Part shown: one piece after another, positions 4,162 through 60,863 of the stretch
Position numbering within the stretch: position 1 is the first letter of the stretch
How the letters are laid out: the number at the start of each line of letters is the position of its first letter
Assembly (NCBI RefSeq): GCF_051622035.1
Contig: NC_135357.1
Location: 32,654,191-32,718,190 of the forward strand
Reading direction: 5' to 3'
Origin: Arctopsyche grandis
Lineage: Eukaryota; Arthropoda; Insecta; Trichoptera; Hydropsychidae
Length of the DNA stretch: 64,000 bases
Translations under genes and position numbers: made by a program
The notes under the pieces: model-generated
The model's input: only the letters and a program-made list of their open reading frames with translations
What the model was told of the DNA's origin: nothing
Database searches by the model: none

Positions 4162-4395
4162 GGCCAGCAGCGTACCTCAGTGGTCGCGTTGATACTAAGC
4201 ACCGACAGGTCTCCTGGTTCGATCCCGTGAGCTGACCTCGATTGAAACGAATTTATTCCGGGTATAATCTTTAATGCTGCTGGTCAGACTTGGATATCTG
4301 TGACTACAAGTCGATAGTTTCCCACCAGAGTTTGCCAATGTATCTGATTTCATTGTTGAAGCGGTTCCTCCATCAATTTGGCAAAAACCATCTTA
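4162..4395 (+). mobile_element. tRNA-derived SINE, head and body
   Basis: Starts GCCAGCAGCGTACCTCAG (A-box-like), with B box GGTTCGATCCC near 4218, then the shared SINE body (CTGCTGGTCAGACTTGGAT, CGGTTCC). The LINE-derived tail is absent; another repeat begins at once. Related copies: 6255-6672, 27827-28075, 38640-39006, 39419-39822. Confidence 0.8.
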
Positions 4396-4690
4396 TCCAC
4401 TGCTACCCAGGGCTGTCGAGAGGATCCCGGATCCTGGGAAAAAATCATTTCGGGCCCTATGACAAACTAAAAACAAAGATCTTATAGATATATTTTTAAT
4501 GTGCGAAAAATCTATCAGAACTATTATAAAATACCTATGTATATATTGGTTGCTATTTTTAAAATAATTAAATAAGAAAATATGATATAGCAGGTACGAT
4601 TTCCGACACGGGGTCTCTCGAGTAGTCTGGGCCCTGGAATTTAACCTCGGCTCTCCCCCCCCCCACCCTCTCATCGGCCCTGAATATATC
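4396..4690 (+). repeat. dispersed repeat R
   Basis: Segment from CCCAGGGCTGTCGAGAGGA to ATCGGCCCTGA. The same sequence occurs at 55038-55483, where a MITE interrupts it, and its last about 90 bases recur at 40548-40635. A poly-C run lies just before the end. Its class is unknown. Confidence 0.65.
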
Positions 4691-4769
4691 ACCACTATTT
4701 GAATATGATTTCAAAAATTTACTATCTATAACATAGATGTCTCGCTAATTCTTGTACATATACATATGT

Positions 4770-4832
4770 CTGGTCACAGTGACGCGTTTAAGTATTCTGT
4801 TCTATTTCTATTTCTAGTCACTGTAAAAAAAT
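4770..4832 (+). repeat. degenerate LINE-tail hairpin
   Basis: Contains CACAGTGACGCGTT followed by TAGTCACTGT, the same stem as the better LINE tail at 59776-59817 but with an enlarged, decayed loop. Confidence 0.5.
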
Positions 4833-5774: not shown

Positions 5775-6958
5775 GGTGCTACTTTAGTATGCGGTCTACC
5801 TTTGAATCGCAGTCGACTATTTCATATACATACATAGTAACAATATATGAAGTTTTGTGATCATGCGAAAATTCGAACTCGAGATTTTGACTGATTCGAA
5901 ATCAGAATCGATCACTGATCACGTTTTCATGTTCTAGAAAGAAAATGTGTGTGCGTAGCTCTGTGTATTTTGGGGATTTTTTGAACACCGTTAGTCCTAT
6001 CAAACTGATTATTGTTTGTATCGTAGCAACGACCTGTTTATTATAATTTTTGTTTTTTTTATTACCGCCCCATAATGTTGTCGAAGCATTTCTATCAAAA
6101 TACCGTCAACAGCGGAGAAAATACCGACCCTACCAACTTAATCTTAAATTAATAGGGCCAACCCTATCTTAACCTAACCTAACCTGGCCCTTATATAAAT
6201 AGGTGTTTGCTGCTAAGATATATTTTTTTTTTTTTATTTATTTTTTATTTTTACATATATACCAGGAAGGCCTTACAGGTAAATCCCAATGCGCCTTCCT
6301 GGCCAATTACAAATACAAATACAGCATTTTTATTATAAGTCGTTGAATTGCGAGACACTGAAAAAACTCGCAAATTAACGAGACATCTATGAATTGTACA
6401 TAAATTTTTATTGTACATCAATCAAATTTTTCAAATAGTGGTGACATAGTAGGTAGGAAGGATTTTTAGCCAATTTTTTTTTCCGGGAACCGTTTCAACA
6501 ATGAAATCAGAGAAAATTGGCAAACTCCGATAGGAAACGATCAACCTGGAGTCACAAATCCAGGTCTGACCAACAGCATACTCTGAAAAATTCATTTTCA
6601 TTCAGGGATAGAACCCGGCACCTTCTTGACGGTAAGCAGAAGCTTAACGTCCGAGCTATGCTGCTGGCTTTATGTTTATATGTTTTTGTTTTAGTTTTAT
6701 TTCATCAATGTTTTAACAAAAAAAACATATCTTAGCAGCCAACACCTATTTATTTAAGGTTCAGGTTAGGTTAGGTTAAGTTAAGGTTGGCCCTATTCTT
6801 TTAAGATTAGGTTGTTAGTAGGGTCGGTATTATTCAGTCTCGCTGTCACACGCGAGTACTGAGACAGTGAGACCGCAAATTAAAGTAAAAACGTGAAGGT
6901 AGATCGCATACTAAAGTACATAGATATGTGGATGTAGACCGCATACTAGAGTGGCACC
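5775..6958. mobile_element. foldback element with telomere-like core (family F)
   Basis: Ends GGTGCTACTTTAGTATGCGG and CCGCATACTAGAGTGGCACC are inverted copies. The 8-bp direct repeat CATTATGA flanks both sides (5767-5774, 6959-6966), so both ends are exact. Inner arms carry AACCTAACCTAACCT and its complement, facing each other. A SINE (6255-6672) sits inside. The second copy is 29804-30670. Confidence 0.88.
6255..6672 (-). mobile_element. full-length tRNA-derived SINE
   Basis: Minus orientation. Head near 6672 (AGCAGCATAGCTCGG), B box complement GATAGAACCCGG near 6607, body with AACCGTTTCAACAATG, tail hairpin at 6262-6302 (CCAGGAAGGCC ... GCGCCTTCCTGG on the plus strand). It lies nested in the foldback 5775-6958 and is therefore younger than it. 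Confidence 0.85.
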
Positions 6959-10029: not shown

Positions 10030-10216
10030 AGTAAATTATGTACAAATCTAAACATTCATAAATGTCTCAATGGATTAATTCTGTAATTAATTAATTGTTG
10101 TTTGGTGTTCTTCAGCTTCTGGAAATACAATGATTTATGCAATAATAAAATGCTGCATTGTTTGTAATTAATTGTCCAGGAAGGCGCATTGGGGTCTTCC
10201 TGTCAAGCCTTCCTTC
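10030..10216 (+). mobile_element. SINE tail (subfamily 2)
   Basis: Matches the 3' half of the SINE at 39419-39822: GTCTCAATGGATTAATT, CTTCAGCTTCTGGAAATACA, then hairpin CCAGGAAGGCGCATTGGGG / CAAGCCTTCCTTCC. The head and body are missing (5' truncated). Confidence 0.8.
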
Positions 10217-11031
10217 CTTCAAATCTTCAATGCATATTCACATACGTATGTATGTATGTAGCTAGTATTTCAGCTCTCAGGTCAAAAACTCTCTCAGACA
10301 GGTAGATCCATTACGAAATTTATTCCCGATCATCGTTTAATATATCTGTCGAGTCTACTGTCACATTCTAAATGAAAACAGGAATAAGCCGAGAGTAAGA
10401 ATTCGCCTATATCTACCGAGCGCGCGCGTGCGTGCTTTTTTTGTATTATTTTCACTTCGTTTTGTTTTGTTTGTTTTCTGTCGTCTTTTTGTCCTTCTCC
10501 GCCTTGTTGAAAGTTCGCTCTCTGCGAAAGGTGCGTTTTTTATTCCCCCCGAGAGAGTGTCTTCGTTTTTTTCCCGCGCGGGGGAAAAAATTGAAGTTAA
10601 AGAAGCAGAAGCAGCAGAAGAAGTAGACGGGAGGGGGGAGGAGGGGGGGAGGCAGCGGGTCCGCGAGGCTGCATAAGAAACGGACGATTTATTGCGAAAA
10701 AACGTAAACAAAGACAGACGGACGGACATCTCGAAACGTATTTTAGGCCACCGTGTACAAACGCTCGGTGCTGCCAGGCCGACAAGTTTATATACCGCGG
10801 AAAACGAACATGCTTATAAAATTTAATTCTCCATCCCCACCCCCCACCCCCCAGCTTCATTTCTCGTTATCCACGAATGCACCATACCTATGCACATGTG
10901 CAAGTTCGTATATTTTAACTGCTTATATTTTGATCGCTTGTATGTACATATATATAGACTATATAGTATATTGAATTTTCTGTAACACTGTAACTCACTA
11001 AGAAGTTCTAGAACTAGATATATTAGCCTTC
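10217..11031. other. GC-rich island 10.4-10.7 kb, possible promoter or 5' exon
   Basis: About 10400-10700 is unusually GC-rich, with CGAGCGCGCGCGTGCGTGC, CCCGCGCGGGGG and GAGGGGGGAGG tracts and purine/pyrimidine strand bias. Open frames on both strands here come from composition. Such islands in AT-rich insect DNA often mark promoters or first exons, but no gene can be attached. The remainder is AT-rich. Confidence 0.25.
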
Positions 11032-11987: not shown

Positions 11988-12168
11988 TTCAACCAGCAGC
12001 GTGGACTAACAGTAAGCATATAATGCTTTCGAACGGAGCTATCACGGTTCGACTCTCACTAGTAGCTGTTGGCCAGACCTTGGTTTGTGACTACAGGTCG
12101 ATCGTTTTCTTTCAGAGTTTGACAATTTTTCTGATTTTCATTGAAACAGTTCCTGTAAATTAGCATTT
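11988..12168 (+). mobile_element. tRNA-derived SINE, second head type
   Basis: CCAGCAGCGTGGACTAACAG (A-box-like), then GGTTCGACTCTC (B-box-like), followed by the shared body (TTGGCCAGACCTTGG, GGTCGATCG, CAGTTCC). The head differs from the copy at 4162 and resembles that at 31461-31912. The tail is missing. Confidence 0.7.
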
Positions 12169-14818
12169 CTTTTCCAATGTCTCTTGCAAATCTCAAGTTA
12201 TTCCGCGTTTTGAGGTTCACTTATTTCTATAATAAAAATCCTGCAAAAATTTCTCCATATGCTCGTACATATGCCACTGTGGATGATGTTTGTATGAATT
12301 CGCATTGTTTAAAAAATGCTTGTTTCAATTGTATTGTATCTGTATTAGTACACTTGTCGCTTTGGAGCGATCTGTAAAGGAGAGTGTACATGTTCGATTG
12401 AAATAAAATAAATAAGGATTTGTAAGATTTAACAACGGTGCAAAAACTTAAAGTGATAATTGTAAAGATTGGTAACGATTTTAGATTTAGAAATTAAAAA
12501 TTGATTGAACAAATAATTAGGAGTAAAAACAAGAGTGAACGAACTGCAGCATACGGTGGTTGATTTTTGATTTTTTTTAATGCTTTTTGTTGTCCATATA
12601 CTATATTATCTTCACAATATTTACATATGTATGTACATATATCTTAACTCTTTGCTCGCATACTTGTTTTAGTGATTTTTCAAATTGAGTTTTTGACTGT
12701 TATTTAAATGAACTATGTCAATTGACGCCTTAAAAGTCTATATTTTTTTAAATAATGAATCACGCCTTATAGTACTTTGTTTACACGGTGAAACACGCCA
12801 TTACGTCTATAGCGGTCATCCGTGAGGTAAGGGTTAAGTATTTTTCAATAGCTACTAATTCATTGATCATTATCTATTTTATACGCTATTTTTCTCGTTA
12901 GCAAGGCTGACGAGGGGGAGGGGCAAATTTCCAGGGCTCGTGCTATTTAATTGACGCTGAGAGAAAATCATAGCAAAAATATATTTATAGAAAAAAAATG
13001 ACCCAAAATTACTCCCACATTAAAAATTACACAATTTTTAATGTAAAAATGAACTTTAGAAAGTTTAGAACTTTTGTCTGCGGCACATACTTTATATTTC
13101 ATAATTATTAACACATCGAAAAATAGGTGTGTATTATTTTCAAATTTTTAAAATATGTAATTCCCCCACTCCCTCCCACCACAATTTTTCTTCCCAGAAC
13201 CTCGAGGTCGCTTTTGACAGCCTTTTATTATTTATAAAATTATCTTATTTCAATGTTAATGTTTATGGTATAATCGTAAAAAAAAGCTCAAAAACCTAAT
13301 AATACAGTGGTTGGAAGTTGCTATAGTATGTACTTAATTACCTTAAGCAGTTATAGAAAAAAATCAACGATGCCTTCATTTGAAAAAGTTGCTCAAAACA
13401 GGCAGTAATAGAAAGAAGTCTAAGATCTTCAGATGAGCTGATAATTATTTGGTAAATGAACAAAGTACACTACCCAAGAAAATTCAGAGAACTGCAAGGA
13501 ATAGAAGCTATATAATATGTACGCATCTGTTAATAATTCTGGAATATATTAATTGAGCTTCTTGATCCCTTTGTTTTGACTAAACAAACAAATGAAAATC
13601 AGTTCACGTTTTTTTTTTAATTTTTACCTTCATTTTGATTTCATCAAAAAGAATATTGAACAGAATAAAAAATCAATGTGGCAACACTGATCCGTGCTCT
13701 GACATCAATCAATGACACACTAACTTCTGCGCATAGATCTCAAGGAAAGGATGGCTTTTGAATCCTTTTAAATTCAATTAAAACTATAACACAACGCCGT
13801 GTACGCGTCGAATGGAGCAAGCGGTCTACATAAGTAAAACCTTCGGGGATAATGATTAGAAACACCCCATCTATTACACAATATAAATGAAAGCAATATA
13901 CATATAATACATATGTACATACTAGCAATACGTAATACTATGAAGCAGTTCGTGCGTCAAATTATCTACTGACTAACAAATTGGAACTTAAAAAGCAACG
14001 AATTTTACAGCCGCCTCTTTTGTTTAGAAATATTTTTTATTTGAATGCGATTTTTGAATTTTATATCACTTATGGTATTTTGGATCGGAATTTTATAGCC
14101 GTGCCGCAATAATGGGTATTCATTTGATGCAATGACGCACGTTGACGCGTCAACTCGTCCAATCTCAGCCTTCTCAACTGGTCCACTGCCAGTTTTTCAT
14201 CTAAATTTATGTCTTCGCTCGTTCTTCAGCACATTCCCTATATAAAAAGGCATTCAAAATAACGTCTAACGTCACACATAAAAGGAGCAAAATAATTTGC
14301 ACAAATAAAATCGCGCCAAAACGGTGGAGGGACATTGGAAAATCTCAAATCCATTATTCAACATTCTTGATTCAGAACCATCATAAATTTCACCTCGTAT
14401 GCTTTGATCGTAATGGGCTTTGTTTTTGTTGTGAATTCGTTAAATTTAGCCTAAATTAGCGTGTCAGGGTTGAGTCAACTGCATCAGTACTACCAACTTC
14501 AACACCGTACTAGTTGATAGAAGTATGCAGGAGAAATGCTACAGCTGTTTGCCAGTGTATAGCTATTTGCCAATTGAACTGAAACATTCGCTAAATAGTA
14601 ATAAATAGTTATGAACAAGTTCTCAGTAACAACAATTGTAGTTTCCTTCATTTAAATATATGGACAATATTTATTTATACATTAAGAAAGTCGACATATC
14701 CGCAGGATCCAATATTTATATTTTCCCAAGATACCGTATTTGGCACTGAGCAACATCTTTGGTATTAAACTACACAAAGTATTTGAAATCATATTCAAAT
14801 AGTATTTTATTTTTACAT
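12169..14818. other. AT-rich intergenic DNA
   Basis: About 2.6 kb without a supportable gene or repeat boundary. Scattered short frames have no domain. TATAAAAAGGC at about 14240 resembles a TATA box but no transcript start can be defined. Confidence 0.4.
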
Positions 14819-15163
14819 AGATATATGTATACCAGAAAGTCTTGACAGGAAGACCCCAATGCGCCTTCCTGGACAATTAATCACAAACAATGCAGCATTT
14901 CATTATTAAATAAATCACTGTATTTCGAAGATCACTGTGAAGAACACGACATAACAATTAATTATAGAATTAATCCATTGAGACATCTATGGATGTTTAG
15001 ATTTTTGTACATAATTTTTACAAATTACACACACAATAAATACAGAAGATTTGTAACAACAGGAAATATGATTTTTCGCCAATGTTGATGAACCGTTTCA
15101 ACAATGATCAGATAAAATTGGCAAACTCTGATAAGAAACGATCGATTTGGAGTCACAAATACA
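14819..15163 (-). mobile_element. SINE (subfamily 2), head truncated
   Basis: Tail hairpin at 14832-14872, then subfamily-2 tail (GACATCTATGGATGTTTAG) and body (GAACCGTTTCAACAATG ... GGAGTCACAAAT). The tRNA head is missing. Confidence 0.8.
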
Positions 15164-15390
15164 TTGGCTATAAATCCTTCCTACCAACCGTGTCACCACT
15201 ATTTGAGTATGATTAATGTATAATAAAATGTATGTACAATTTATAGATGTGTCGTTAATTTGCGAGTTTTCAGTGTCTCGTAATTCAGCGACTTGTATAA
15301 TAAAAAATGCTGTATTGTTTGTAATTGACCAGGAAGGCGCATTTGGGTTTACCTGTAAGGCCTTCCTGGTATAAAAATGTAATATATGTA
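15164..15390 (+). mobile_element. SINE tail (subfamily 1), head-to-head with its neighbour
   Basis: Starts inside the body (CCTTCCTACCAACCGTGTC), with the subfamily-1 tail (GTCGTTAATTTGCGAGTTTT) and hairpin 15329-15369. It abuts the minus-strand SINE of the other subfamily without spacer DNA. Confidence 0.8.
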
Positions 15391-18319: not shown

Positions 18320-18382
18320 ATTTATTTATTCTAAACAGACCATTGTGGCATAACAGAAATTCCTAAAGCGCCACAATGGTCA
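18320..18382 (-). mobile_element. LINE 3' tail with hairpin
   Basis: CCATTGTGG ... CCACAATGG (18340-18379) encloses the conserved loop motif, and a TTTATTTATT tail follows on the outer side. Same tail type as at 44061-44101. Confidence 0.75.
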
Positions 18383-20074: not shown

Positions 20075-20165
20075 ATTTAACCCTAACAACCCAATCTTAA
20101 ATGAATAGGGCCAACCCTTACCTAACCTAACCTATCCTAAACCTTAAATAATACCAACCCTAACA
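20075..20165. repeat. fragment of foldback family F
   Basis: AACCCAATCTTAAATGAATA, then GGGCCAACCCTTACCTAACC, matches the inner part of the foldbacks at 5775-6958 and 29804-30670. The ends are not present. Confidence 0.65.
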
Positions 20166-25131: not shown

Positions 25132-28100
25132 ATGGACGAAGAAAAGCGCAGTCAGACATCGGAGAAGGCCAGTCCCGTTGACAACATAGACGTGGACGAG
25201 GCGGTCGAGGCTTCCGAGTCGACGGACCTCCCCGACAGCGGCTGGTGGGGATCATGGATCACAGCGGCCAAGTCAAAGGTATGACACACGAGCACTAGAG
25301 TGAGAAAATCCTCCGAGTATATCGCTTGAATATTTTATGACGTTTGATTTTTGCGTTCAATTCCGTTTTTGGTTTTGTGTAATACATTGTTCACTTTCGG
25401 TTAATTCATGTTTGATTGATTTTACAGTCTGTCGAAGTTTTGGGAATGGTAAAAAAGGATCTGGACGAATTAAGTACGGCTGTAAAAAGTGAAGCTTCGC
25501 ATGTCATCAACACTACATCTTCCGCTATAGGAAAAACTTTTAAAGTATTTTTATTTTTAATTTTTCGTATACATTGTTTTATTTGTCACTTTTTATTATA
25601 TTATATTATATATTGTATTGTTAGAGATTAGAGTGTTTATATGTGTATTTAATTTGTAGATATTTATTTCTCATTGTAATTCGAGTAAAATGTAATCAAT
25701 AGGCAATTGAGGTATCTTAAAATATTCATTTATATTAATTACACTCACATAAATAGCATTGGACAGCAAATACGAACCCTTTGAGTGCTGACGTCTTTTC
25801 TGTTGAAAGCCCGCCATGCTGAAAATTTCGCCAACATTTAGAAATCTAATAGAAAGCAGGTATTAAAATTGTAGATAATTCAAACAAACCCTAGATAACT
25901 ACCACTGAGGATTTTGAGTTTTGTAAAGGTGTGTTTAGACGCACTAATATATCTTGCAACAATATAAAATAAACTTAATATGTCTATTAATGAATGTATT
26001 TTTCCAAAAATAGTTCCATCTTCTTCATTGTTGTTAAAATGTAATGCTCACAATCTAAATGCCAAGCCACAATCTAAAATACTCGGCAGTTAGGGATTTC
26101 CATCGAGAAATTCTGCTATGGTTATAAATTCAGAAATTCCGGTGTCTTTATAAACGTTTACACAGATTACACGACCCATGTTCAATGCATTTTTTTTTTT
26201 CAATGCTACCTGGAAAGGCTTAACGGATAGTATTCTTGTTTATTTTTTATTACATACTCAAAATACAACGTCTATTGGCGTATTTCGGGCTCATGGACTT
26301 GTTGTCAAAACGCCGATCGGCGTTGGTCAGCATTCAAAGGGTTAAGAAGTATGTATTAAATGTGACATAAAATTTTTGGTCCACCGGGTACAAATATGAT
26401 ATTGTTGCGTAGGGTTAGGTTCAGGATCTAAACTAAAGGCCAAAGTCGCTTCACAGCATTTATTCAACGATCCACGGAACCACCGCTCACTCAGGAATAA
26501 TCTTATCTACTGTGTGTACATATTTATAAAGGACAAGTTACACAGCACAGCTTCCCCGATCCATTAATGTCTCTTTTGTCTAGGCACTTAAAGGTCTATC
26601 CTGGCGAGTCTATTGTTTACGCACGCACTGGCCCAGGTCTGTGAGAAGTCCAGCGTATCCTTTGTTCAAGCACTTACTGAGTCCCGTTAGCCTAATCGGG
26701 GGTCTCTATTGTTCACCCACGAATGCACTTAGGCAGTGGACACCCTCTGTCATATTCCCACGTTACAATATTAAAATTAATTCAACAATATGATATATTA
26801 TAATAAATTACACAATTCTTTCATTCATATGCAACTTACTGAATTGTCTGGAGTTTCTCGTTCGAGTGAAAGTTGGAAAAAATTGTATTCGTTGAAATGG
26901 GCCTTTAGGATACCTTTAAGGCGCAGACACACTGAATTGTGTGGCACAGCTTGCTTAGGTAGACTCCATATGTGATGGGCGTATCCTCATGTCATTGTTA
27001 ATTCGTATGATCTTATTATTTCGACAGATATCTCTTATATTTCTTCAAATATGGAAATCATCGTTATCGATCACTGTCAAACCTGTGTCAATACAAGGAT
27101 AAAAGATCACCGAAAACACTCCCGGGGATGAGTTTTGACCTGCGTGCCAAAACATACATCAGGCGTGCTAGCGTTTTTTTACATGTTTTTTACTCTCCGT
27201 GTCTTTTTGCAGACACACAGAGTTTTGCACATGCAAAATAGCTGGTCCGCCAAATCTATAACATTGTGTCCCTTCGAAAAGCTCACCCTCTGGAGTGTTT
27301 TGAGTAATATTTTATACTTGTTTTGACTTATTTATAGAAATGTTGATGAAACTTGTCGAAATAATAAAATCGTACGAATTAAAAATTACATGAAGACACG
27401 CCTATCACATTTGGAGTCCACGTATGCGTCCCGTGCCGCACTTTTCAACGCGTTCTTAATATTAGACTATAATTATAAATCGTTTTTCATCTATTATAAC
27501 ATAAATTCTTGCTCAATGAATCCGGTATTGTTGTCCAATGTGATTTAACTGATTTTTACATACTTATATTTTCCACGTTTATTTTTATTCTACACTGCCT
27601 GATTTACATTGATGTGTGTGTGTGTGTGTGTGTGGGAATGTTTGTCAAATACATTATAATTGCGTATGAATAAGTTAAATATGCTATATTTTATTTTATT
27701 TTTTTAGCTTGATGAACCGGAATCGACGGCTAATGTAATGAAAAAGAGCTTCAGCACATTTTTAGGTAAACGTCGTGTGTATTTTGCTATCATTTAAAAG
27801 ATCAAAACTTTACAACCTTTTATATCAGCCAGCAGCCTAGCACCAAGAGGCGCCGGGTTCGATCCCGTGAGTTGACCTCGATTGAAAAGAATTTATTCCG
27901 AGTATATCTTTAATGCTGCTGGTCAGACTTGGATATTTGTGACTCCAGGTCGATCGTTTCCTATCAGAGTTTACCAATTTTTCAGATTTCATTGTTAAAA
28001 CGGTTCCTCGATTAAATTGGCTAAAAAACCTTCCAACCTACAATGTCACCACTATTTGAGTATGATTAATGTAGGGAACAATTTAAACGCTCCCTACATT

Positions 28101-31100: not shown

Positions 31101-33533
31101 GAAAAAAATGTGTAAAAATGTATGTTTGACTTTTAAAATTTGCTAGATAACACTGAGCAAAAAAAGTATTACCAGAGCGGAGACAATATTTATCAATATC
31201 AATTCATACTAAGTTTGATATTTCCAAATGAACGTTTAGAAAAGTGTGCAGTTTTTACAGATTTTTGACTTTTGAAGTCTTAACTCAATATCTAGAATGC
31301 CTGTGTCAAAAGTGAGGATTGGAATCTACAGTAAGATTTTTTTCTATTGATTGCGATTGCTTTAACATATTTATAATTAATTATCTAGCGAATTTTAAAA
31401 GTCAAAAATATTTTTTTTTCTCGAGCCGTAATTTATTTATTTATTTTACATACAAATATACCAGGAAGGCTTAACAGGTAAACCCCAAATGCGCCTTCCT
31501 GGTCCACATAATTATTACTTAGATACATGTAAATCTAATTAATATCTGACATCTATCGTCAGATATTACAAATATCGTATTAATACGATAAATAACGATG
31601 AATAACTTTCATGTAACAATACGAATTTTATATTTGATAAACAACCACAGAGACATCTATGGTGAGCAATATGGCGAAACCTAAGATATAACAATAACTA
31701 AAGGTTCGCAACAGAAAATTGGGAAGGAAACGCCAATTTTACAGGAATCGTTTCAATGAAAATCAGAAAAATTGACAAATTCTGATAAGAAACGATCGAC
31801 CTTGACAAATCAAGGTCTGGCCAATAGCGAGACTTAGCGGGAATCGAACTCGTAACATCAAGTACGAGATAATTCAACATTCACCACTAGACCACGCTAC
31901 TGGTTATGCAATTATTGGGCCAGTTTTATATTTCACCACATTTAAAAAGATTGGTTTTCAACCTCAATTGTATACTCGTACATATATGTTTTATTTGAAC
32001 GTACTAATTCGAGCGGCAAATGATTTTAAATTACATTATGTAATGCCATCGCTCACGAGTGCGCACATCTCTAGAGTAGGAAACTACATTCTTCACCTCA
32101 CTGCATACGGTCATCAACAACAGCATTTTTAACTCAATTTAAAATCATTTACCGCTCGAGTTAGTATGTTTTGATGAAAAAAAATATTATTATTAAAAAA
32201 ATATTGAAAATCAATTCTCGTAAACGTGGTTTTATATAAAACTAGCTCAATAGATTCATAATACCTAGAGATAAAAATATTTAACAAAAATAGTATATTT
32301 TAACTTTTAGAATTCACTAGGTAATTAATTATAACAATAAAACTTGATTCCAACCCTTACTTTTGGCACAGACATACTAGATTTTGAGTCAATACTGCAA
32401 AAGTCAAAAATCTGTAAAAATTGCGTATTTTTTTAAACGTTCATATCTATATAAATGAGAAAAACTAACAAAAACCATTATCATATTCGACCTCAACGGG
32501 TCAAATTTAGTTAATACTGATATTGATAAATATTGTCTCCGCTCTGGTAATGATTTTGTTGCTCAAACACACCTAGATATATATTTTTTACACATATTAC
32601 ATTTATTGGGTCAGTTTTATATTTCACTACGTTTACAAGGATTGATTTTCAATACTCACTTTTGCCACAGCAATACTACATACATAGATTTTGAATTAAA
32701 TACTGCAAAAGCATTTTTTCATACGCTCATATCTCATAAATGATTAAAAATCATTGTCATATTCGAATTCAGTGGGCCAAACTTAGTACAGTTTGATTAG
32801 TCTCCGCCCTGGAAAGAAAGAAAAGTGATTTTTTTGTTGTCATCGATTGAAACTTGTCCCTTATTAGACCCATTCGCCCCTGCCCATCATATCGGTGGAA
32901 CGACTTAGAGGGAAACTTGGTTCACGAGTGGCACAATTACCAAGCTTCGAAGCAGTGGTTTTTTGACGTGTCGTCCTTTTGTTTCCAGAAGACTTCGCCA
33001 GCAACATCGAACTGACTGAAGAGCAACAGATCAAGTTGCTTCAGGAGTATGAAAATGAAATAGCCGCCAACGAAAAGAACAAACGCCTGTTCGAGGACTC
33101 TGGCTCGCTCGACTCGCCGCAGGACTCGGCTCCGACCACACCCCAGATTCAATCGCCGGCGTCCCTCAAATCGAACAAATCGGCGCCGCAGATCAAAGCC
33201 ACCACCAAAGTCGACAAGACTAAGAAAGCCATCGCGAGCACGCGCTCCAAAAGCTCCGATACCATATCGAGTGCCGCGCAAAAGTCCGCGTCGAAGAAGA
33301 CCGTCACTAAAAAGGACGCCGCGTCGAAGAAGCTGAACGAGGTGACGAGCAACATGAAGGAGGATCACTTCGTCGCCGATTCCAAGACGGTCAAGAAGAC
33401 CAAAGTCAAGAGTCTGTCGGAGGAGATCGCCGAGAATGATCCGAAAATCATTTCCGACAGTGCGAGCAACAACTCGGACGAGAGTTGGGAGAAGGAGTTC
33501 GAAATAGACGATTTGCATATAAGTTCCAAGTGA
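25132..33533 (+). CDS. BSDC1: BSD domain-containing protein 1 (BSDC1-like), seven coding exons
   Basis: Exons 25132-25278, 25428-25544, 27708-27765, 28776-28873, 28946-29154, 29236-29486 and 32989-33533 all have AG/GT borders and compatible phases, giving 474 aa. The N-terminus is acidic, then GWWGSW (residues 38-43). The BSD domain lies at about 155-220, with its Phe-Trp signature in DDFWER (F207, W208). A Ser-rich stretch follows, then a Lys/Ser/Ala-rich, probably disordered region, ending WEKEFEIDDLHISSK. This order and the terminal acidic-hydrophobic motif fit animal BSDC1 (human about 430 aa), whose molecular role is poorly known. The start is the first ATG in an exon opening only 10 bases upstream, so an untranslated 5' exon must exist, or coding could extend upstream. 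Introns 2, 3 and 6 hold piggyBac-like, LTR, SINE and foldback insertions. A variant polyA signal ATTAAA lies near 33787. Confidence 0.87.
25777..26341. mobile_element. piggyBac-like MITE in BSD-gene intron 2
   Basis: Left CCCTTTGAGTGCTGACG and right CAGCATTCAAAGGG are inverted. TTAA follows the right end (26342-26345); the left flank is CGAA, probably a mutated TTAA. The interior shares sequence with 23855-24062. No transposase. Confidence 0.8.
26403..26767 (+). mobile_element. solo LTR in BSD-gene intron 2
   Basis: TGTTGCGTAGGG ... CCCACGTTACA, with TG/CA ends and ATAT duplicated at both sides (26399-26402, 26768-26771). Includes TTATAAAGGACAAG. No internal coding region, so it is a product of LTR-LTR recombination or an isolated LTR. 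A second copy is at 33964-34917. Confidence 0.8.
26929..27460. mobile_element. foldback element in BSD-gene intron 2
   Basis: Two arms of about 180 bases: GGTAGACTCCATATGTGATG ... TCATGTCATTGTTAATTCG pairs with CGAATTAAAAATTACATGA ... ATCACATTTGGAGTCCACG, and CACTCC motifs meet in the middle. The left end TTAAGGCGCAG resembles 1226-1566. Exact right end uncertain. Confidence 0.75.
27614..27635. repeat. (TG)n microsatellite
   Basis: About 10 TG units in intron 2 of the BSD gene. Confidence 0.85.
27827..28075 (+). mobile_element. tRNA-derived SINE in BSD-gene intron 3
   Basis: GCCAGCAGCCTAGCACCAAG head (shortened), B box GGTTCGATCCC, body GCTGGTCAGACTTGGAT to CACTATTTGAGTATG. The tail is broken: ATGATTAATGTAGGGA (28064-28079) and its complement (about 28097-28112) form a small inverted repeat, and a decayed tail reappears at about 28668-28735. 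Confidence 0.78.
29804..30670. mobile_element. foldback element, family F copy 2, in BSD-gene intron 6
   Basis: Left GGTGCCACTTTAGTATGCGG, right inverted copy ending CTAAAGTGGCAACC. Flanking octamers CATATAAG and AATATAGG agree at 6 of 8. A unit of about 150 bases (GAATCGCAGTCGACT ... GTTGGCTGCTAAGATAT) is tandemly duplicated at 29850-30140. CCTAACCTAACCT blocks occur on both arms. Confidence 0.82.
30960..32830. repeat. inverted dispersed repeat block in BSD-gene intron 6
   Basis: Sequence at about 30990-31400 (AAAATATAAAACTGGCCCAA, TATTACCAGAGCGGAGACAA, ACAGATTTTTGACTTTTG) reappears inverted at about 32290-32580 and partly again to 32830, with a SINE between. Related sequence lies at 53025-53060 and 53880-54070. 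It is an AT-rich element family of unknown class. Confidence 0.65.
31437..31912 (-). mobile_element. tRNA-derived SINE, third head type, in intron 6
   Basis: The complement has GTAGCGTGGTCTAGTGGTGA (clear A box) and GAGTTCGATTCCCG (perfect B box), body with CTATTGGCCAGACCTTGA and GAAACGATTCC, tail hairpin at 31461-31502. It is the most tRNA-like head in the window, but it is attached to a SINE body and is not a tRNA gene. Confidence 0.85.
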
Positions 33534-37800: not shown

Positions 37801-37960
37801 AATTTTTAATTTAACGTATCATTAACTCTCAGGTTAGTTAATTTTCTTTTCTAATATATAAAAATCAGTATGAAATTTACTACTACTTATTTATTTGGTT
37901 TGTATAAAACATCAACTTCTGGTTTCTGACTGATTTTGTTTTAAAAACATTGTTATTTTT
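37801..37960. other. 3' flank of the LRR gene
   Basis: AT-rich; no feature beyond a likely 3' UTR. Confidence 0.4.
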
Positions 37961-37979
37961 ACATATATACCAGGAAGCA

Positions 37980-38091: not shown

Positions 38092-38640
38092 GAATGTCTG
38101 TGTGTGTGTGTGTGTGTGTCTCGAATAGGCTGCTAAACCACTGAACCGATTACGATGAAACTTTCAGGATTTGTTGTGTGCATGTCCGGGAAGATTACTG
38201 TGAAAAAAAAACGGGAAAAACGGGAATGAGTGTCATTGCAACGCAATAATTTCAAATGTGTTCGCTACCTGCGTTTTTCCGACAAATGGGAACGGGAACG
38301 AGAACGGGAATTGCATGCGTTATTATGGCATTGCAACGCATGCCGGGGTTCAGCTAGTCCTAAATAACTTTAGCATCAGTTGTATTTGATGCTCGGTGCT
38401 CGACGTATGTCCGATAAAAACTTCTCTGTTTTTATTACTCGCAAGATGGGCAAGCATCGGTAAAAATTGCACAATGCATTCAAAAACACACAATAAAAAA
38501 CATGGGATACATTTTTATAAGTATGTAAATCGATCCGATTGTATTCCGTGCGTTGTAGCGTATTTATAGAGACGTACCGCGTAATATTGACAACAGTTAT
38601 TTATTCGTAAGGGCCCTTCTATTATTATATTAATTATCGT
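37980..38640. mobile_element. TIR element E, copy 2
   Basis: AGAAATGTTATAATAATAGA at the left, TTCTATTATTATA at the right. The interior matches 7501-8301. It is interrupted by a Helitron at 38051-38357 and itself interrupts a SINE. Confidence 0.75.
38051..38357 (+). mobile_element. Helitron, non-autonomous, complete
   Basis: Starts TCTACATATA after A, ends GGTTCAGCTAG before T. Near the end GGCAT-TGCAACGC-ATGCC forms the hairpin typical of Helitron 3' ends, followed by CTAG. A (TA)n and a (TG)n run lie near the 5' end. The uninterrupted relative at about 7567-7590 shows the empty AT site, so both ends are exact. Confidence 0.92.
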
Positions 38641-39125
38641 AAGGCCTTACAGGTAAACTCCAATGCGCCTTCCTGGACAATTACAAACAATGCAGCATTT
38701 TTATTACAAGTACAAGACACTGAAAACTCGCAAATTAACGAGACATCTATGAATTGTACATTAATCATACTCAGATAGTGGTGACATAGTAGGTAGGAAG
38801 GTTTTTTAGCCAATTTTAATCGGGAACCGTTTCGACAATGAAATCAGAATAATTGGCAAACTCTGATAGGAAACCATCTACCTGGAGTCACTAATATCCG
38901 TCTGACCAGCAGCACTACAGATATACTTGAGGTCAGCTCATGGGATCGAACCCGGCGCCTCTCGGTGATAGGCAGAAGCTTAACGACCGAGCTATGCTGC
39001 TGGTTATATATGTGATAATGACCAAAAGTCTCTTGAAATAATCCTCTTGGCCAAAATGGTCTATGTATAAAGCCTATTGCGCACTGTCGACCGGTCGTCG
39101 TCGACTGTAATTTATACAGTCTTAA

Positions 39126-39331: not shown

Positions 39332-39418
39332 GATGGGTGTTTACGCACTGGGTCGCCGGTCGCATGATCGACCAGCGAATTGCTGTGTCAGCAAGAGTTC
39401 GATCGAACCAAATGTTTA

Positions 39419-39822
39419 GCACCATTGGGTTCGATCCCGGGCTAATCTTTAACATACTGCTGGTTAGACTTGGATGTTTGTGAGTCCAAGTCGATCGTTT
39501 CTTATCAAAGTTTGCCAATTTTATCCGATCATTGTTGAAACGGTTCCCGAAAATTGGCAAAAAAATCATCCTACCTGCTGTCACAAATCTTCTGTATTGA
39601 TGTATGTATGTATGTACAATTTGTAAAAATTTATGTAAACGTCTAAAAATCCATAGATGTCTCAATGGATTAATTAGTTAATTGTTAATTTCGTGTCCTT
39701 CAGCTTCTCGAAATACAGTGAATTATGTAATAAAAATGTTGCATTGTTTGTAATTAATTGTCCAGGAAGGCGCATTGGGGTCTTCCTGTCGAGCCTTCCT
39801 GGTATATATCTATGTAATAAAA
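39419..39822 (+). mobile_element. SINE subfamily 2, nearly complete
   Basis: B box GGTTCGATCCCGG at about 39428, body, subfamily-2 tail, hairpin 39762-39802, then TATATATC and a poly-A stretch. The A-box part of the head is missing or replaced. Confidence 0.82.
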
Positions 39823-42396: not shown

Positions 42397-45300
42397 ATGA
42401 ATTTGGGTGGGTTTAAAGTACCTAGCCCTAGGGCTGCCATGGAAGTAGCCCTTCAGACAGTCAGGCAGCAGATTCCTGTAAAACCTGCTCCTCCACAGAG
42501 ACAAAATGTCCGATTCGCCAGGCAAAGTGAGTCTTCTTTTTCATATGTCGATTTCACCTCGTAAACAATGGGGTTTACTCATTCAGTATGCTTTCAGGCA
42601 CGGCTGAAAGTTGCGAGATGGCGGCCATGTACGAAGAAGGTGGTTCACCCACTTACCAGTCGACCAATCCCAACAATCCGTTCGCCAAAGGTAACGTAGC
42701 TGAAGAGAGCTTCATCGGAGGATACCAACAACAAGGATATCAACAGCAAGGCGAAAATGGACACAATAGGTACATTTTAATGGCCCAAAACCATAGAAGT
42801 AGAATGCATAGAATCGCTCTCAGCCTCCAAAAATGTTGCTACAAAAACTCTGCGCGGCAGAGTTGTTGGTTCATTGTTTGCTAAACTTCGTCTCTCTCTC
42901 TCTCTCTTGTCTCTCTTCTGACTTTCCGTCTCTCTCTTCGATGGCTCGCTTTTAGACGATACCTTTGTTAACAATGCCCAGCTATATATTCTACTTCTAT
43001 GCTTAAAACCCAAACTAACTGGCGAACATCCCTCGGTGACTCCCTCAATACTGGATCAGTGCTCGACAGTTAGTTTGTCCATTTAGTGTATCTATTTAGG
43101 TATGAATTGTATAATGAAATGATGTTTCAGGCAACCGAGTATGCAGAGTGTTGATTTCTATGCTTCTTCTGAAGAAGGTTGCGAGGGGGAAGGGGGAGGT
43201 CGACATGGAGCTAAAATTAATGAATATCAGGCTGCTTGGAACGTTACAAATGCTATTCAGGTATATTTTTCATTTATGAATATTTTCATTGACTACTTAC
43301 ATAATTGTTGCAACACATTTTCAAATCAACACAAGTATTTATTATATAACGAGAGTAAGATTTCCCAATCTGAGTTGCAAACTATTTTTTTTGTTGGTGT
43401 TTTAAAACATAGAAATCCTTTAAAAACTATTATCTAATATATATTGCGTGGTAATACGTCATGCCCGTTGTTGCTGGAACAGTTGGGAATTTATGTCCCT
43501 AATAATTATGTGCGTGGTAGACATCATCATTTGATGGTTGTACCTGCTGCTCGCACAGTTCTTTTTCGAATGGCTCCTATTCCAAGAGCTATTCGACTTC
43601 TCAATGAAATCGTTGCTGCTGTCCCTGAATGTGATATTTTCGACCTTGGGGAGCGTAGATTATCGGATATTATCTTAACATATTTATCTGGTAACCTGCG
43701 CTCATCATTACTTTCTTAATTTGAATGTGATGAATGAGTGGAATCTTAATCTACTCTCTTCCATTTGGGCCTCGCTGTGATTTTATTTTTTATTCATATT
43801 TTGTTTTATTTTATTTTACTTTTTCTTTCTCCTTTGTACATTTTTATATACTATTTTAATTTTGTTCAGTGTAAACAAAGAATGGGATTTATGGATTTTA
43901 TTTTTAATTTTTACACTTTTGTTATTTTTTTTTCTCTCTGAATGATGTATTATTTTCCTTTTGTTACTTTTTTTTATTATTTTATTTTACCATGTTTTCT
44001 GCTTTTGCTTTTTTCCTTTATTTACAGTTTACTTGTTTTTATATATTTTTCAAATGTAAGCCACTGTGGCGCATTAGGTTCTTCCTGTAATGCCACAATG
44101 GTCCAAAACTATTAAATAAATAAATAAATAAATATAATTTCGAAACATACTTTGTAACTGTTTTTGGTTCGTAGAAAAACAAATGAATATTCAAATAAAT
44201 TAAAATAAAATACAACTATTCAAATACATTTGATGAAATGTTTACTATTAGATTGGCCATGTTTAAGCGGTTTATATTACAAATACCGAGTGAAGCTGGG
44301 TAAAAATACTAGGTATATCATACGGAAGATTCAATAATATAATACATATGGTAAACGGATTATTTCGCACACGACAATCGTTTATACTATAATAATCGAA
44401 TATGGAATATCTGACTCTCGAGTTCTTGTTAATATGATAGTTCGCGTGGTTAACTCACGATGGATGGAGTTTCGGGTGCTAGATGTTCCGTGATTGAGAT
44501 TTTAGTGAATTGTGCGAGATCACTTTGTGCGAATTGTGTATTACCGAACCAATACATTCATATATAAATGTAGGATTTGATTCGCGAAAGGATACGTGGT
44601 ACAGGCAGCAATGAAACTCATTCAGCGCCTTAAATCATGTTTCGTTCTCGATGCGCCGAAATGATTTTTAACGTGTCGTTACGCAGTATACTACCTTAAG
44701 CATACACTCGACCCAATCATGCCAACTTAATCATAAATGCATGCCCTATTTTGGGCTTGAAAACTAAATTCTACATAAATTTCTGTTATTTGTTTAAATA
44801 CATATGTACATTTTTTATTATTAATGTATAAACATTCCAAACTAACCAAACCTCACTAATTAATTTTCAGGGAATGTTCATTGTATCCTTGCCATTCGCC
44901 GTGCTCCGCGGAGGATACTGGGCTATAGCCGCCATGATAGGAATAGCGCATATCTGCTGCTACACAGGCAAAATACTAGTCGAATGTCTTTACGAGGATG
45001 ACCCGGTCACAGGACAGAAGATCAGAGTCCGAGACTCCTACGTCAGCCTTGCCAAGGAATGCTTCGGCCCCAAATACGGAGCAAGAGCCGTCAACATAGC
45101 CCAGATCATTGAACTTCTCATGACGTGCATTCTATACGTGGTGGTCTGCGGAGATCTCATGATAGGTACATTCCCAGACGGAGCCATAGACACCAGATCA
45201 TGGATGATGCTGATAGGAGTCTTCCTGATACCCTTGGCCTTCTTGAAATCGCTCCAATCAGTCAGCATGCTATCTTTCTGGTGCACGATGAGCCATCTTT

Positions 45301-50557: not shown

Positions 50558-50573
50558 CTTAGGGCGGTTTCAG

Positions 50574-58319: not shown

Positions 58320-58770
58320 GAAGTATTTGGAACTTTACATAATTTCTTATCTGAAAACAAGAATATGTGAAAAATAATTGAACATTTAATAGGGATGAAA
58401 TCGTTTTTTACACAGTGCTTCTCCAAACTTTAAGAAGCAAATAATTGGATTTCAAACCCCTTTGATAACGAACATTTTCGGACAGCTACCAAGGAAAAGG
58501 TGAACTAGATATAACTTTCAAATTATAGCATTTAAAAACCGAATTCGAAATAAATAAGGTTATTAATTTTTGGCTAGGTATTAGTGAAGAATATGAACAG
58601 CTTTCTGACATAGCGCTTAAGTTTCTGTCGCCGTTTACTAGCACTGAACTGGTTGAGAGAGCTTTCTCTTCATATATTTTAATAAGACAAATATATAAAT
58701 AGATTGAATGCAGTTCCAGATTTAAGGGTACATCTCGCATCATTTGAACCAAATTTTAAAAAACTATACT
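58320..58770 (+). pseudogene. hAT transposase C-terminal relic
   Basis: Across several frames: NWISNPFDNEHF, then VINFWLGISEEYEQLSDIAL, KFLSPFTSTELVERAFSS, and after a shift NRLNAVPDLRVHLASFEPNF. This is the hAT C-terminal dimerisation region as found in ZBED-like transposases. In-frame stops and shifts make it a relic. Confidence 0.82.
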
Positions 58771-59105
58771 CCTCGAAACAAGTACAAGGATCTCATTAAA
58801 TTTATTTTGTAATGAGATTTAATTAATGAAAAGAAAATATATTATATGTACTTTGTAATTTTGTGTTTTTATTAAAACCATTTATCAATAATATAAGTAT
58901 GGGGGATGAACGAATGAGACGACTGGCATGTTAATGCACGAGTTTTATTTATGACAACTGAAGGCAGAGTGAGGTAGCTAGCTCCGAACACAATCGAGTT
59001 GGTCCCCACTCGCAGGAAGGTGACCAAACTCGACCATGTCGTATAACGAGCCGCCGCAGAAGTATGACAAAATAGTAGATAAATATATTAAAATTTGAGC
59101 ATATT

Positions 59106-59840
59106 ATAATTATGACTCCGCAAATAACTTTTTTCCACAAAATTTCTTACCAAAGCAGATCTACGTATTGCGTGTATCCTGTTTTCACATTCCTTACAAT
59201 GCTAATACTATATAGCATTCTAGAATTTTCTTCCATTATATGGAATCCTACCCATATAACTCATTCATTGAAGATTGAGAGAATCCAAAAACGGTTTCTC
59301 AGATATCTTCATATGAAACGGTATGGTTATTATCCTTGGCTATATCCTAGTGCATTCCTATTAGGGGCGTTAGGTTTCAACTCATTGGAGTCTCGTCGGA
59401 ATATGTTACTGGGAAGGCACTTTTTTAAGCTGTTGAATGGGATAATACACAATCCTCAGGTTCTTAATGAATTTAGGTTTTATGCACCTAGTAAATTCAG
59501 GGACTTGAGGAATCGTGATTTCTTTGTTCCTCCTGTGGCTCGCACAAATATGTTGGGAACGGCTCCTATATCTAGGGCGATATATCTGCTCAACCGGATT
59601 GCTGGTGAAATTGACCTCTTCGATATAAAATATGCTAATCTGGTTGAGTGGTTGTTGAGGAATGCCAGTGGTTGATTTGATTAATATGAATGATTGTTAT
59701 TTTTTATGATTTTAATGGTGTTGTGTTAATATTGTTATTATTATTGTTATCATGTTATTATTATTGAATGACTGGCCACAGTGACGCGTTGGAGCTCTCT
59801 GTAATGTCACTGTGGCTAATATGTTAAAATAAAAATATAA
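59106..59840 (+). mobile_element. LINE 3' end nested in the hAT element
   Basis: An open frame to 59675 reads ILYSILEFSSIIWNP, IERIQKRFLRYL, then a C-terminal tail ending SGG-type and stop: the last 185 residues of a LINE reverse transcriptase. After a 100-base 3' UTR comes the hairpin GCCACAGTGACGCGTTGG / GTAATGTCACTGTGGC (59776-59817) and an AAATA-rich tail. The frame is intact, so the copy is fairly young. Confidence 0.88.
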
Positions 59841-60223
59841 TAATTATACTTGCAAAAACAAATTTCATGAAATACAATCATTTTTATATAGTGGTACAAT
59901 TTAGCGTTAACCAAGTGGTACGCGAGTCAAAAAAGGTTGCGAGCCGCTGATGCAGAGCATCGTAAAGTGAATGCCGTGGCAGCATAGAAGCGTATAGCAC
60001 TATAGCATATTCCCATAAGTGATACGAGAATCACCACTCATATACACCTCTCACTCGTGCACATAGTGAGAGAGTGAGATGCGCTATATGCGTTCCGCTA
60101 TTCACCAACAGGCGTTCTAGTGGCGCGCTGTCGGTCATTTGACGGTAAACGGACTACTAGTCAAATGTGAACCTGTCACAGGACAACTGTTCGCTCTAGA
60201 TCGGTCACTCGTGATCATCCGTC

Positions 60224-60575
60224 ACGCTAAAACTGGTCACGAGAAAACTAGTCACACGCTAAAACTGGTCACGAGAAAACTAGTCACACGCTAAAACTGG
60301 TCACGAGAAAACTGGTCACACGCTAAAACTGGTCACGAGAAAACTGGTCACACGCTAAAACTGGTCACGAGAAAATTGGTCACACGCTAAAACTGGTCAC
60401 GGGAAAACTGGTCACACGCTCAAATTGGTCACGGGAAAACTGGTCACACGCTAAAACTGGTCACGAGAAAACTGGTCACACGCTAAAACTGGTCACGAGA
60501 AAATTGGTCACACGCTAAAACTGGTCACGGGAAAACTGGTCACACGCTCAAATTGGTCACGGGAAAACTGGTCAC
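60224..60575. repeat. 32-bp minisatellite, 11 units
   Basis: Exactly 11 units of 32 bases (352 bases), each made of two related halves, ACGCTAAAACTGGTCAC and GAGAAAACTGGTCAC. Units 4-7 and 8-11 share the same series of variants (GAG, ATTGG, GGG, CTCAAATT), i.e. a 128-base higher-order repeat. A shorter inverted relative is at 18120-18311. Confidence 0.93.
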
Positions 60576-60863
60576 ACCCAAAAATTTAAAATTGGTCACA
60601 CAAACAAAAATATTCTCAAATACTTTTTATTTACGAAATTTTTACTATTATCGACTAGAAATTTTCTTACAGAAAACATTATAAATGCCAATTCAGCAGT
60701 AGAAAAAAAAATTTTTTGACTGTTCAGTGTCTATTAAAATTATAGTGAAATATACTAATAAATATACTAGATATCGATACCAACACGTGAAGGTAAAAAA
60801 TACAAAATATTTAATACTTTTATTAAAAAAAAATTATTTATATTACTTTTTTGTTTATTTTAG

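What the first reader, a model, noticed from the sequence alone, without database searches (positions are those of the whole stretch)
59776..59817. A paired but sequence-variable 3' hairpin shared by LINE ends and SINE tails
In sense orientation each tail reads stem, GCGC-(A/T)TT or ACGCGTT, a short loop ending C-TGT, stem complement. The stem is CCAGGAAGG/CCTTCCTGG in SINEs (6262, 10176, 14832, 15329, 31461, 39762), CCACTGTGG or CCATTGTGG/CCACAATGG at 44061 and 18340, and CACAGTGA/TCACTGTG at 59776. Stem bases change together while loop words persist. Two copies directly follow a LINE reverse-transcriptase stop codon. This suggests an RNA structure bound by the LINE enzyme, with SINEs having acquired one version. 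SINE-LINE tail sharing is known in general; this loop family is not one I can name.
Basis: partly seen in the sequence, partly recalled or inferred. Interest (0 to 1): 0.8.

Follow-up and report, generated by a model that had tools for sequence, protein, structure and literature searches.

The report
Shared RNA tail of jumping genes
Several different jumping genes in this stretch of DNA end in the same small folded RNA shape, whose stem changes letters in matched pairs while its core stays nearly fixed, which is most likely the handle by which a copying enzyme recognises both its own RNA and that of shorter hitch-hiking elements.

Summary
Eleven alignable tail hairpins (and a decayed twelfth) share an 11-bp lower stem, a 4x4 internal loop (GCNU/UNNN), a 4-bp inner helix (URGR/YCUG) and a 4-5 nt loop, so the "persistent loop words" are partly paired. 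In the 11 copies, 10 of 15 pairs change on both sides; none of 500 shuffles reaches that. Five rows covering four stem types give 97% of cells paired, again 0 of 500. A covariance model built only from the three LINE-type tails finds 6 of 7 SINE tails at E 1e-8 to 5e-4; the matching sequence-only profile reaches 0.03 at best. Two LINE relics 37% identical in protein precede such tails. Two SINEs 74% identical over 218 nt of head and body have quite different stems on the same core. One SINE tail carries the stem of the 59776 LINE.

Best reading: a stringent-type LINE 3' recognition element, its core read by reverse transcriptase, its stem free to drift or be swapped, and used by tRNA-type SINEs. 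Such elements are known in kind (UnaL2/ZfL2, monocot L1), so this is a new member. A LINE with the CCAGGAAGG stem could not be sought: no genome is held.

The parts
59774..59817 (+). LINE 3' tail hairpin, stem GCCACAGTGA/TCACTGTGGC (the given finding)
   Evidence: (z -4.68)
59079..59675 (+). Open frame holding the C-terminal part of a LINE reverse transcriptase protein, 5' truncated; stop 98 nt before the hairpin. No Pfam family covers it; the RT/LINE label is recalled, plus homology to 43441-43716
44059..44103 (+). LINE 3' tail hairpin, stem CCACTGTGG/CCACAATGG
   Evidence: z -4.46; E 6.6e-6 with SINE-only model
43441..43719 (+). Relic of a second LINE C-terminus, 36-37% identical to the first, stop at 43717
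   Evidence: (tblastn E 4.9e-9)
18338..18381 (-). LINE-type tail hairpin, stem CCATTGTGG/CCACAATGG; called LINE-type by its stem, no LINE protein match upstream
   Evidence: z -6.74; E 1.7e-3
12347..12390 (+). SINE tail hairpin with stem GTACACT/AGTGTAC and the same core
   Evidence: z -2.37; E 0.09
11991..12346 (+). SINE head and body assigned to the 12347 tail by position (B box at 12047; core 12061-12202; the last 150 nt before the hairpin do not align to other copies)
4772..4828 (+). SINE tail, decayed, stem ACAGTGA/TCACTGT as in the 59774 LINE, longer loop
   Evidence: z -1.79; E 0.8; E 0.066
4164..4771 (+). SINE head and body of the 4772 tail, interrupted by an insert at about 4388-4684
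31459..31905 (-). Full-length SINE with CCAGGAAGG tail hairpin (31459-31504), tRNA-like head with A/B-box words
39370..39804 (+). Full-length SINE with CCAGGAAGG tail hairpin (39760-39804)
6260..6667 (-). SINE with CCAGGAAGG tail hairpin (6260-6304); 5' end approximate
38634..39003 (-). SINE with CCAGGAAGG tail hairpin, 3' arm decayed (38634-38678); 5' end approximate
14830..15160 (-). 5'-truncated SINE with CCAGGAAGG tail hairpin (14830-14874)
15157..15371 (+). 5'-truncated SINE with CCAGGAAGG tail hairpin (15327-15371)
10033..10218 (+). 5'-truncated SINE with CCAGGAAGG tail hairpin, outer 3' arm lost (10174-10218)
27857..28073 (+). SINE head (from the B box) and core; a 3'-half tail remnant lies at 28698-28719

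Best explanation
These are 3'-terminal RNA recognition elements of stringent-type LINEs, borrowed by tRNA-type SINEs. In the RNA, an 11-bp lower stem presents a nearly fixed module: closing C-G, 4x4 internal loop GCNU/UNNN, inner helix URGR/YCUG, 4-5 nt loop. It is followed by a short A-rich AAATAA-type repeat. The LINE protein most likely binds the module, with the stem read mainly as a helix. It then starts target-primed reverse transcription in the terminal repeat, for its own RNA and for any SINE RNA with the same module. Shown here: the structure by covariation, its place downstream of two LINE relics and at SINE ends, and different stems on related SINE bodies. Inferred: binding by the LINE protein, the start point, and that stems are exchanged between elements.
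For: Covariation: 11 copies, 151 of 165 cells paired (91.5%), 10 of 15 pairs changed on both sides, 0/500 shuffles; slid registers pair 38-52%. Five rows (three LINE-type tails, the 12358 SINE, one CCAGGAAGG SINE): 97.3% of 75 cells, 10 of 15 pairs, 0/500. RNAalifold finds the same fold unprompted. The SINE-only model finds the three LINE-type tails at E 6.6e-6, 1.4e-4, 1.7e-3. The LINE-only model finds 6 of 7 SINE tails at E 1.4e-8 to 4.8e-4, the decayed seventh at 0.3 and the 12348 tail at 0.09. The LINE-only sequence profile gives the seven SINE tails E 0.03-0.35. 56 decoy loci chosen for the core words score at most 24.1 bits (LINE model) and 18.5 bits (SINE model). LINE relics 37% identical in about 80 aligned residues share 14 of 18 core bases. 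AAATAA-type repeat within 60 nt of 9 of 12 tails, against 10% of random places in the window. Precedent: ZfL2 LINEs retrotranspose with a swapped stem but not with a swapped loop (PMC4176376, section 13).
Against: All copies are in one window, most look old, none is shown to be active, and neither LINE relic is full length, so no RNA-binding region can be examined. No LINE with the CCAGGAAGG or GTACACT stem was seen. The SINE-only sequence profile alone already finds the 44059 tail (E 1.8e-4). In one search two antisense matches of training sites (20.5 bits) outscore the 18338 tail (19.5), which is only just above the best decoy (18.5); the 10178 SINE tail (23.3) is below the best decoy of the LINE model (24.1). 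Decoy searches used default filters, window searches none. Among LINE-type tails the stem is not more variable than the core (59785/44070: 14 of 20 stem, 14 of 18 core bases). In UnaL2, changes of stem sequence lowered retrotransposition strongly (PMC4176376, section 19), which speaks against a free stem. The 12347 hairpin is tied to its SINE body by position only, and its single fold differs in the inner part. No convincing target-site duplications were found for six SINEs.
Confidence: 0.82

Rival explanations
1. The hairpin is a generic 3'-end element (RNA stability, 3'-end formation, Pol III or Pol II processing) rather than the enzyme's recognition site.
For: Such a role would also conserve a fold at the 3' end; nothing here measures binding.
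Against: It is shared by elements with different promoters (LINE mRNA and SINE with a B-box head) and is mostly followed by a simple repeat (9 of 12). In the tested zebrafish LINEs such tails are bound by the LINE protein (PMC4176376, abstract and section 13).
Confidence: 0.1
2. The stem is not neutral: each stem version is a lineage tag co-evolving with its own LINE, so that each SINE subfamily depends on one LINE.
For: At least four stem types coexist; the 4772 SINE shares its stem with the 59774 LINE (14 of 14 bases of 5' arm and core start); the 44059 and 18338 tails share 18 of 20 stem bases. In UnaL2 stem changes lowered retrotransposition (PMC4176376, section 19).
Against: In zebrafish LINEs the stem could be swapped with retrotransposition kept (about half the wild-type rate for ZfL2-1) while the loop could not (PMC4176376, section 13). 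Stem sharing also follows from simple descent.
Confidence: 0.25
3. Only shared ancestry: one old tail inherited by all, with stem differences accumulated by chance.
For: Seven of the 11 aligned copies share one stem, and relatedness inflates shuffle tests.
Against: With five rows for four stem types the result is stronger, not weaker (97.3% paired, 0/500). The 12358 and 31493 SINEs are 74% identical in head and body while their stems share 1 of 20 bases and 0 of 10 pairs, yet both still pair.
Confidence: 0.04
4. A DNA-level feature: inverted repeats of a MITE or cruciform, or an artefact of palindromic sequence.
For: The models also score the opposite strands of several of the same sites, as any near-palindrome would.
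Against: The core is asymmetric: sense exceeds antisense by about 33-54 bits for training copies and by 22-24 bits for the two SINE tails that the LINE-only model scores on both strands. The tails sit at one end of SINE bodies and downstream of two LINE relics. Terminal inverted repeats were not searched for separately.
Confidence: 0.02

Closest known systems
UnaL2 / ZfL2-1 / ZfL2-2 (L2-clade LINEs of eel and zebrafish) and SINE partners
   Same: LINE and SINE share a 3' hairpin; in ZfL2 the loop gives specificity and the stem can be exchanged if it still pairs; short terminal repeats follow (PMC4176376 sections 3, 13, 19; PMC2653535 and PMC3747384 passages)
   Different: No GGAUA in any of the 11 aligned tails; no Rfam match. 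Here the fixed part is an internal loop plus inner helix, and two LINE C-termini 37% identical share it, whereas ZfL2-1 and ZfL2-2 each need their own loop
Monocot L1-clade LINE / monocot SINE tail hairpin (Ohshima)
   Same: Compensatory stem changes, variable stem, fixed loop and flank bases, shared by LINEs and SINEs (PMC3747384, passages)
   Different: L1-clade plant elements with UCU in the loop and a CGAG 3' flank; here the fixed letters and fold differ
Insect SINE/LINE pairs: HaSE1-HaRTE1.1, PxSE5-PxLINE1, ZenoSINE-Zenon
   Same: Insect SINEs (tRNA-headed HaSE1; 5S-derived PxSE5; ZenoSINE, head of unknown origin), some with a conserved central domain, whose 3' tails resemble a LINE tail (PMC3272025, PMC8010984, PMC6685494, passages)
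   Different: The words hairpin and stem-loop occur 0 times in the main texts of all three; supplements and figures were not seen

Membership tests
Stringent-type LINE with SINE partner (kind of system) | LINE and SINE in one genome share a 3' tail | tested here: met
   same core and fold downstream of two LINE relics and at SINE ends. Identical stem only for the decayed 4772 SINE
Stringent-type LINE with SINE partner (kind of system) | The tail folds into a stem-loop kept by compensatory change | tested here: met
Stringent-type LINE with SINE partner (kind of system) | Short terminal repeats after the tail | tested here: met
   9 of 12 tails have an AAATAA-type repeat within 60 nt; background 10% of random places, not matched for A+T content
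Stringent-type LINE with SINE partner (kind of system) | Tail needed for retrotransposition and bound by the LINE protein | not testable with these tools
   needs a cell or binding assay
UnaL2 LINE 3' element | GGAUA loop | tested here: not met
   0 of 11 aligned tails hold GGATA
UnaL2 LINE 3' element | Match to an Rfam model | tested here: not met
   0 matches in the window at gathering score; no LINE-element family at E up to 10 in 59700-59900. That Rfam holds an UnaL2 family is recalled
tRNA-derived SINE | Pol III B box in the head | tested here: met
   exact GTTCGAYYC (consensus recalled) in 6 of 7 full-length heads; 6 of the 8 matches in the window lie in these heads, 1.18 expected in all
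tRNA-derived SINE | Head recognisable as a tRNA by covariance model or ARAGORN | tested here: not met
   0 tRNAs in the window; no tRNA hit on two SINEs at E up to 5; other heads were not scanned at that threshold
tRNA-derived SINE | Target-site duplications | tested here: inconclusive
   none convincing in six SINEs checked; copies are diverged and ends uncertain
CR1/Jockey-group LINE | RT phylogeny | not testable with these tools
   only the C-terminal piece remains; no Pfam match; the group name is recalled from the look of the sequence

The most novel reading that the evidence does not exclude
One nearly fixed RNA module (internal loop plus inner helix) acts as a common currency across LINE lineages that have otherwise diverged to 37% protein identity. 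SINE bodies move between these LINEs by swapping stems while keeping the module, so the stem would record which LINE last copied each SINE.
Probability: 0.3. Interest if true: 0.6.

Novelty: new member of a known kind. Interest (0 to 1): 0.45.

Why it matters
It gives an RNA recognition module defined by covariation in LINEs and SINEs of an insect-like genome. In the three insect papers looked at in passages, LINE/SINE pairing is described from tail sequence similarity. Because several stems coexist on one core in one genome, it is a natural experiment on what the LINE enzyme reads, and it yields search models for partner LINEs in whole genomes. If diverged LINEs really share one module, the strict one-to-one recognition shown for the zebrafish L2 elements would not be general.

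Tried and rejected
Own-genome search: no genome is held. Relatives elsewhere: the SINE-tail pattern in viral contigs gave 2 stretches, L001 and L002, both 63-64% GC, without the 3' arm and without a match to the LINE-type model, so chance. LINE protein in viral contigs: no relative; two-sequence LINE profile: no relative. SINE core pattern in viral contigs and genome contigs: 0 and 0. LINE-type core pattern: 10 viral and 46 prokaryotic stretches; of these 56, none pairs 7 of 7 in the flanking stem, best 6 of 7 (L007). They were kept as decoys; a few are near-copies of one another (such as L003/L008 and L009/L011). Metagenome contigs was not used, because its cap is 0.

Alternative fold with a CG bulge and a C-N-U-U-R helix: it also beats 500 shuffles but pairs fewer cells (85.6% of 187 against 91.5% of 165), and its pair 15-34 is unpaired in 8 of 11. 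It remains possible for some copies, notably 12358, whose own minimum-energy fold uses part of it.

Target-site duplications: none convincing. The host was not identified; insect-like is an impression from gene content and repeats, not a tool result. The SINE central domain was not compared with published domains.

Papers: PMC4176376 was seen as abstract and sections 3, 13, 19; PMC5135761 as abstract and section 7; PMC8010984, PMC3747384, PMC2653535, PMC3272025, PMC6685494 and PMC6401454 as passages; PMC6740152 only in a search listing. PMC5786205, PMC1370625, PMC1636434 and PMC3472496 are not held. No paper describing this loop family was noticed in the rows listed by ten searches, which cover open-licence papers only; most listings were cut at 12-20 rows.

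Full report
What was claimed and checked. All nine named sites are present. A scan for the core words added three: 38634-38678 (-), 12347-12390 (+) and 4772-4828 (+). Core words with at least 8 of 9 pairs occur 11 times in the window against a mean of 0.6 and a maximum of 2 in 60 dinucleotide shuffles. Nine of the 11 belong to the family; two (25082, 61848) do not look like members. The scan was designed after seeing the sites, so this checks chance pairing and is not a blind discovery.

Structure. Eleven copies were aligned (A2); the twelfth, 4772-4828, was left out because its loop carries extra bases. RNAalifold returned, without being given a structure, an 11-bp lower stem, a 4x4 internal loop, a 4-bp inner helix and a loop of 4-5 bases. 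In letters: stem - C - GCNU - URGR - loop - YCUG - UNNN - G - stem complement; one copy (31459) has an extra base in the internal loop. The inner helix is complete in 9 of 11 rows and the lower stem in 5 of 11, with 10 of 11 pairs in three more; the rest have lost two to four pairs. Folded singly, seven of nine sequences have z-scores from -3.8 to -6.7; the 12347 copy reaches -2.4 and folds partly otherwise, and the decayed 4770-4826 stretch reaches only -1.8.

Covariation. On A2, 151 of 165 cells are paired; 10 of 15 pairs have a change on both sides; none of 500 shuffles reaches any of the five measures; slid registers pair 38-52% of cells. Because seven rows share one stem, the count was repeated with five rows (59774, 44059, 18338, 12347, 6260): 97.3% of 75 cells, 10 of 15 pairs, 0 of 500, slid registers 35-52%. 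The top pair of the inner helix is G-C, A-U or G-U and its second pair G-U or A-U. An alternative fold with a 5' CG bulge pairs fewer cells (85.6% of 187).

Cross-detection. A covariance model from the seven SINE tails finds the three LINE-type tails at E 6.6e-6, 1.4e-4 and 1.7e-3; two antisense matches of its own training sites (20.5 bits) lie above the third (19.5 bits). A model from the three LINE-type tails finds six of seven SINE tails at E 1.4e-8 to 4.8e-4, the decayed seventh at 0.3, the 12348 hairpin at 0.09 and the 4772 one at 0.8. Sequence-only profiles: LINE to SINE E 0.03-0.35 for the seven; SINE to LINE finds 44059 at 1.8e-4 and neither of the other two at E up to 10. E-values of the two programs are not strictly comparable. 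As decoys, 56 viral or prokaryotic loci that hold the core words were scored: best 24.1 bits with the LINE model and 18.5 with the SINE model (default filters), against 28.2-39.3 bits for five SINE tails and 27.4, 23.1 and 19.5 for the three LINE-type tails (filters off). The damaged 10178 copy (23.3) falls just below the best decoy and 18338 (19.5) is barely above it; the decoys were, however, the pick of two very large collections.

LINE side. The frame 59079-59675 ends in a stop codon 98 nt before the hairpin. It has no Pfam match but resembles the C-terminal part of LINE reverse transcriptases (recalled). A relic at 43441-43716 is 36-37% identical to it over about 80 residues (tblastn E 4.9e-9) and stops at 43717, about 340 nt before the 44059 hairpin. 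So the hairpin lies downstream of two LINEs that have diverged far. The 950-nt stretches around the two hairpins share no match at E 1e-4; within the hairpins 14 of 18 core and 14 of 20 stem bases agree. For this pair, then, the whole hairpin is kept, not the core alone.

SINE side. Full-length copies start with a CCAGCAGC-type word and a tRNA-like head: an exact GTTCGAYYC B box occurs in 6 of 7 full-length heads. ARAGORN calls no tRNA in the window, and Rfam none on the two SINEs scanned. A common central domain follows, then an AT-rich part, the hairpin, and an AAATAA-type repeat in 9 of 12 tails against 10% of random places (the background is not matched for A+T). The 12358 and 31493 SINEs are 74% identical (162 of 218) in head and body, yet their stems share 1 of 20 bases and 0 of 10 pairs while the cores share 14 of 18. 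Uniform drift at the rate of the body gives 0 of 10 unchanged pairs with probability 0.0004, so exchange of tails or much faster stem turnover is indicated. The caveat is that the last 150 nt of the 12358 body do not align, so its hairpin is assigned by position. The 4772 SINE tail has the 14-base word CACAGTGACGCGTT of the 59774 LINE; these are its only two exact places in the window.

Mechanism. Established knowledge: stringent-type LINEs need a 3' hairpin that their protein binds; in zebrafish L2 LINEs swapping the stem is tolerated (about half the wild-type rate for ZfL2-1), swapping the loop is not, and breaking the stem is not (PMC4176376, section 13). In UnaL2, however, stem changes lowered retrotransposition strongly (section 19), so the stem may not be wholly free. 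A nearly fixed core on changing but paired stems is what the zebrafish rule predicts. Binding, start site and tail exchange remain inferred.

Comparison. The kind is known. UnaL2-type tails carry a GGAUA loop (PMC2653535, passages), absent from all 11 aligned tails, and no Rfam family matches. A monocot L1/SINE hairpin with compensatory stems and fixed loop bases is the closest parallel in pattern (PMC3747384, passages). Insect LINE/SINE pairs with shared tails are published (PMC3272025, PMC8010984, PMC6685494), with no mention of hairpin or stem-loop in those main texts. This is therefore a new member of a known kind. Its unusual points are an internal loop plus inner helix as the fixed part, four stem types in one 64-kb window, and sharing between much-diverged LINEs.

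Limits. No genome is held, so the LINE with the CCAGGAAGG stem could not be sought. The scans of viral and prokaryotic collections gave no relatives. The host is not identified.

Noticed in passing
60159-60648: Tandem array of a 32-base unit (11 register positions). Sequence just 3' of the 18338 tail is 91% identical to 60144-60232 at the edge of this array.
   Followed up: no
58562-58702 (+): Fragment resembling the C-terminal dimerisation region of hAT transposases (Pfam E 0.024, below its cut-off) just upstream of the LINE relic.
   Followed up: partly
49786-50569 (-): Two overlapping frames that look like a broken Tc1/mariner-type transposase (name recalled); the frame 50171-50569 matches a winged helix-turn-helix family at E 4e-11.
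   Followed up: partly
6127-6198, 20080-20151, 29896-29967, 30047-30118, 30323-30394: A dispersed repeat containing CCTAACCTAACC-like words, reminiscent of insect TTAGG telomere repeats, five copies.
   Followed up: no
4276-4401, 12061-12202, 27913-28049, 31693-31828 (-), 38781-38912 (-), 39454-39584, 6479-6579 (-): The SINE central domain (GGTCAGAC...CAGGTCGATCGTTTCCTATCAGAGTTTGCCAATTTT) is shared by SINEs with different heads, like a SINE conserved domain; not compared with published ones.
   Followed up: partly
28698-28719 (+), 37950-37977 (-): Fragments with only the 3' half of the CCAGGAAGG-type tail.
   Followed up: no
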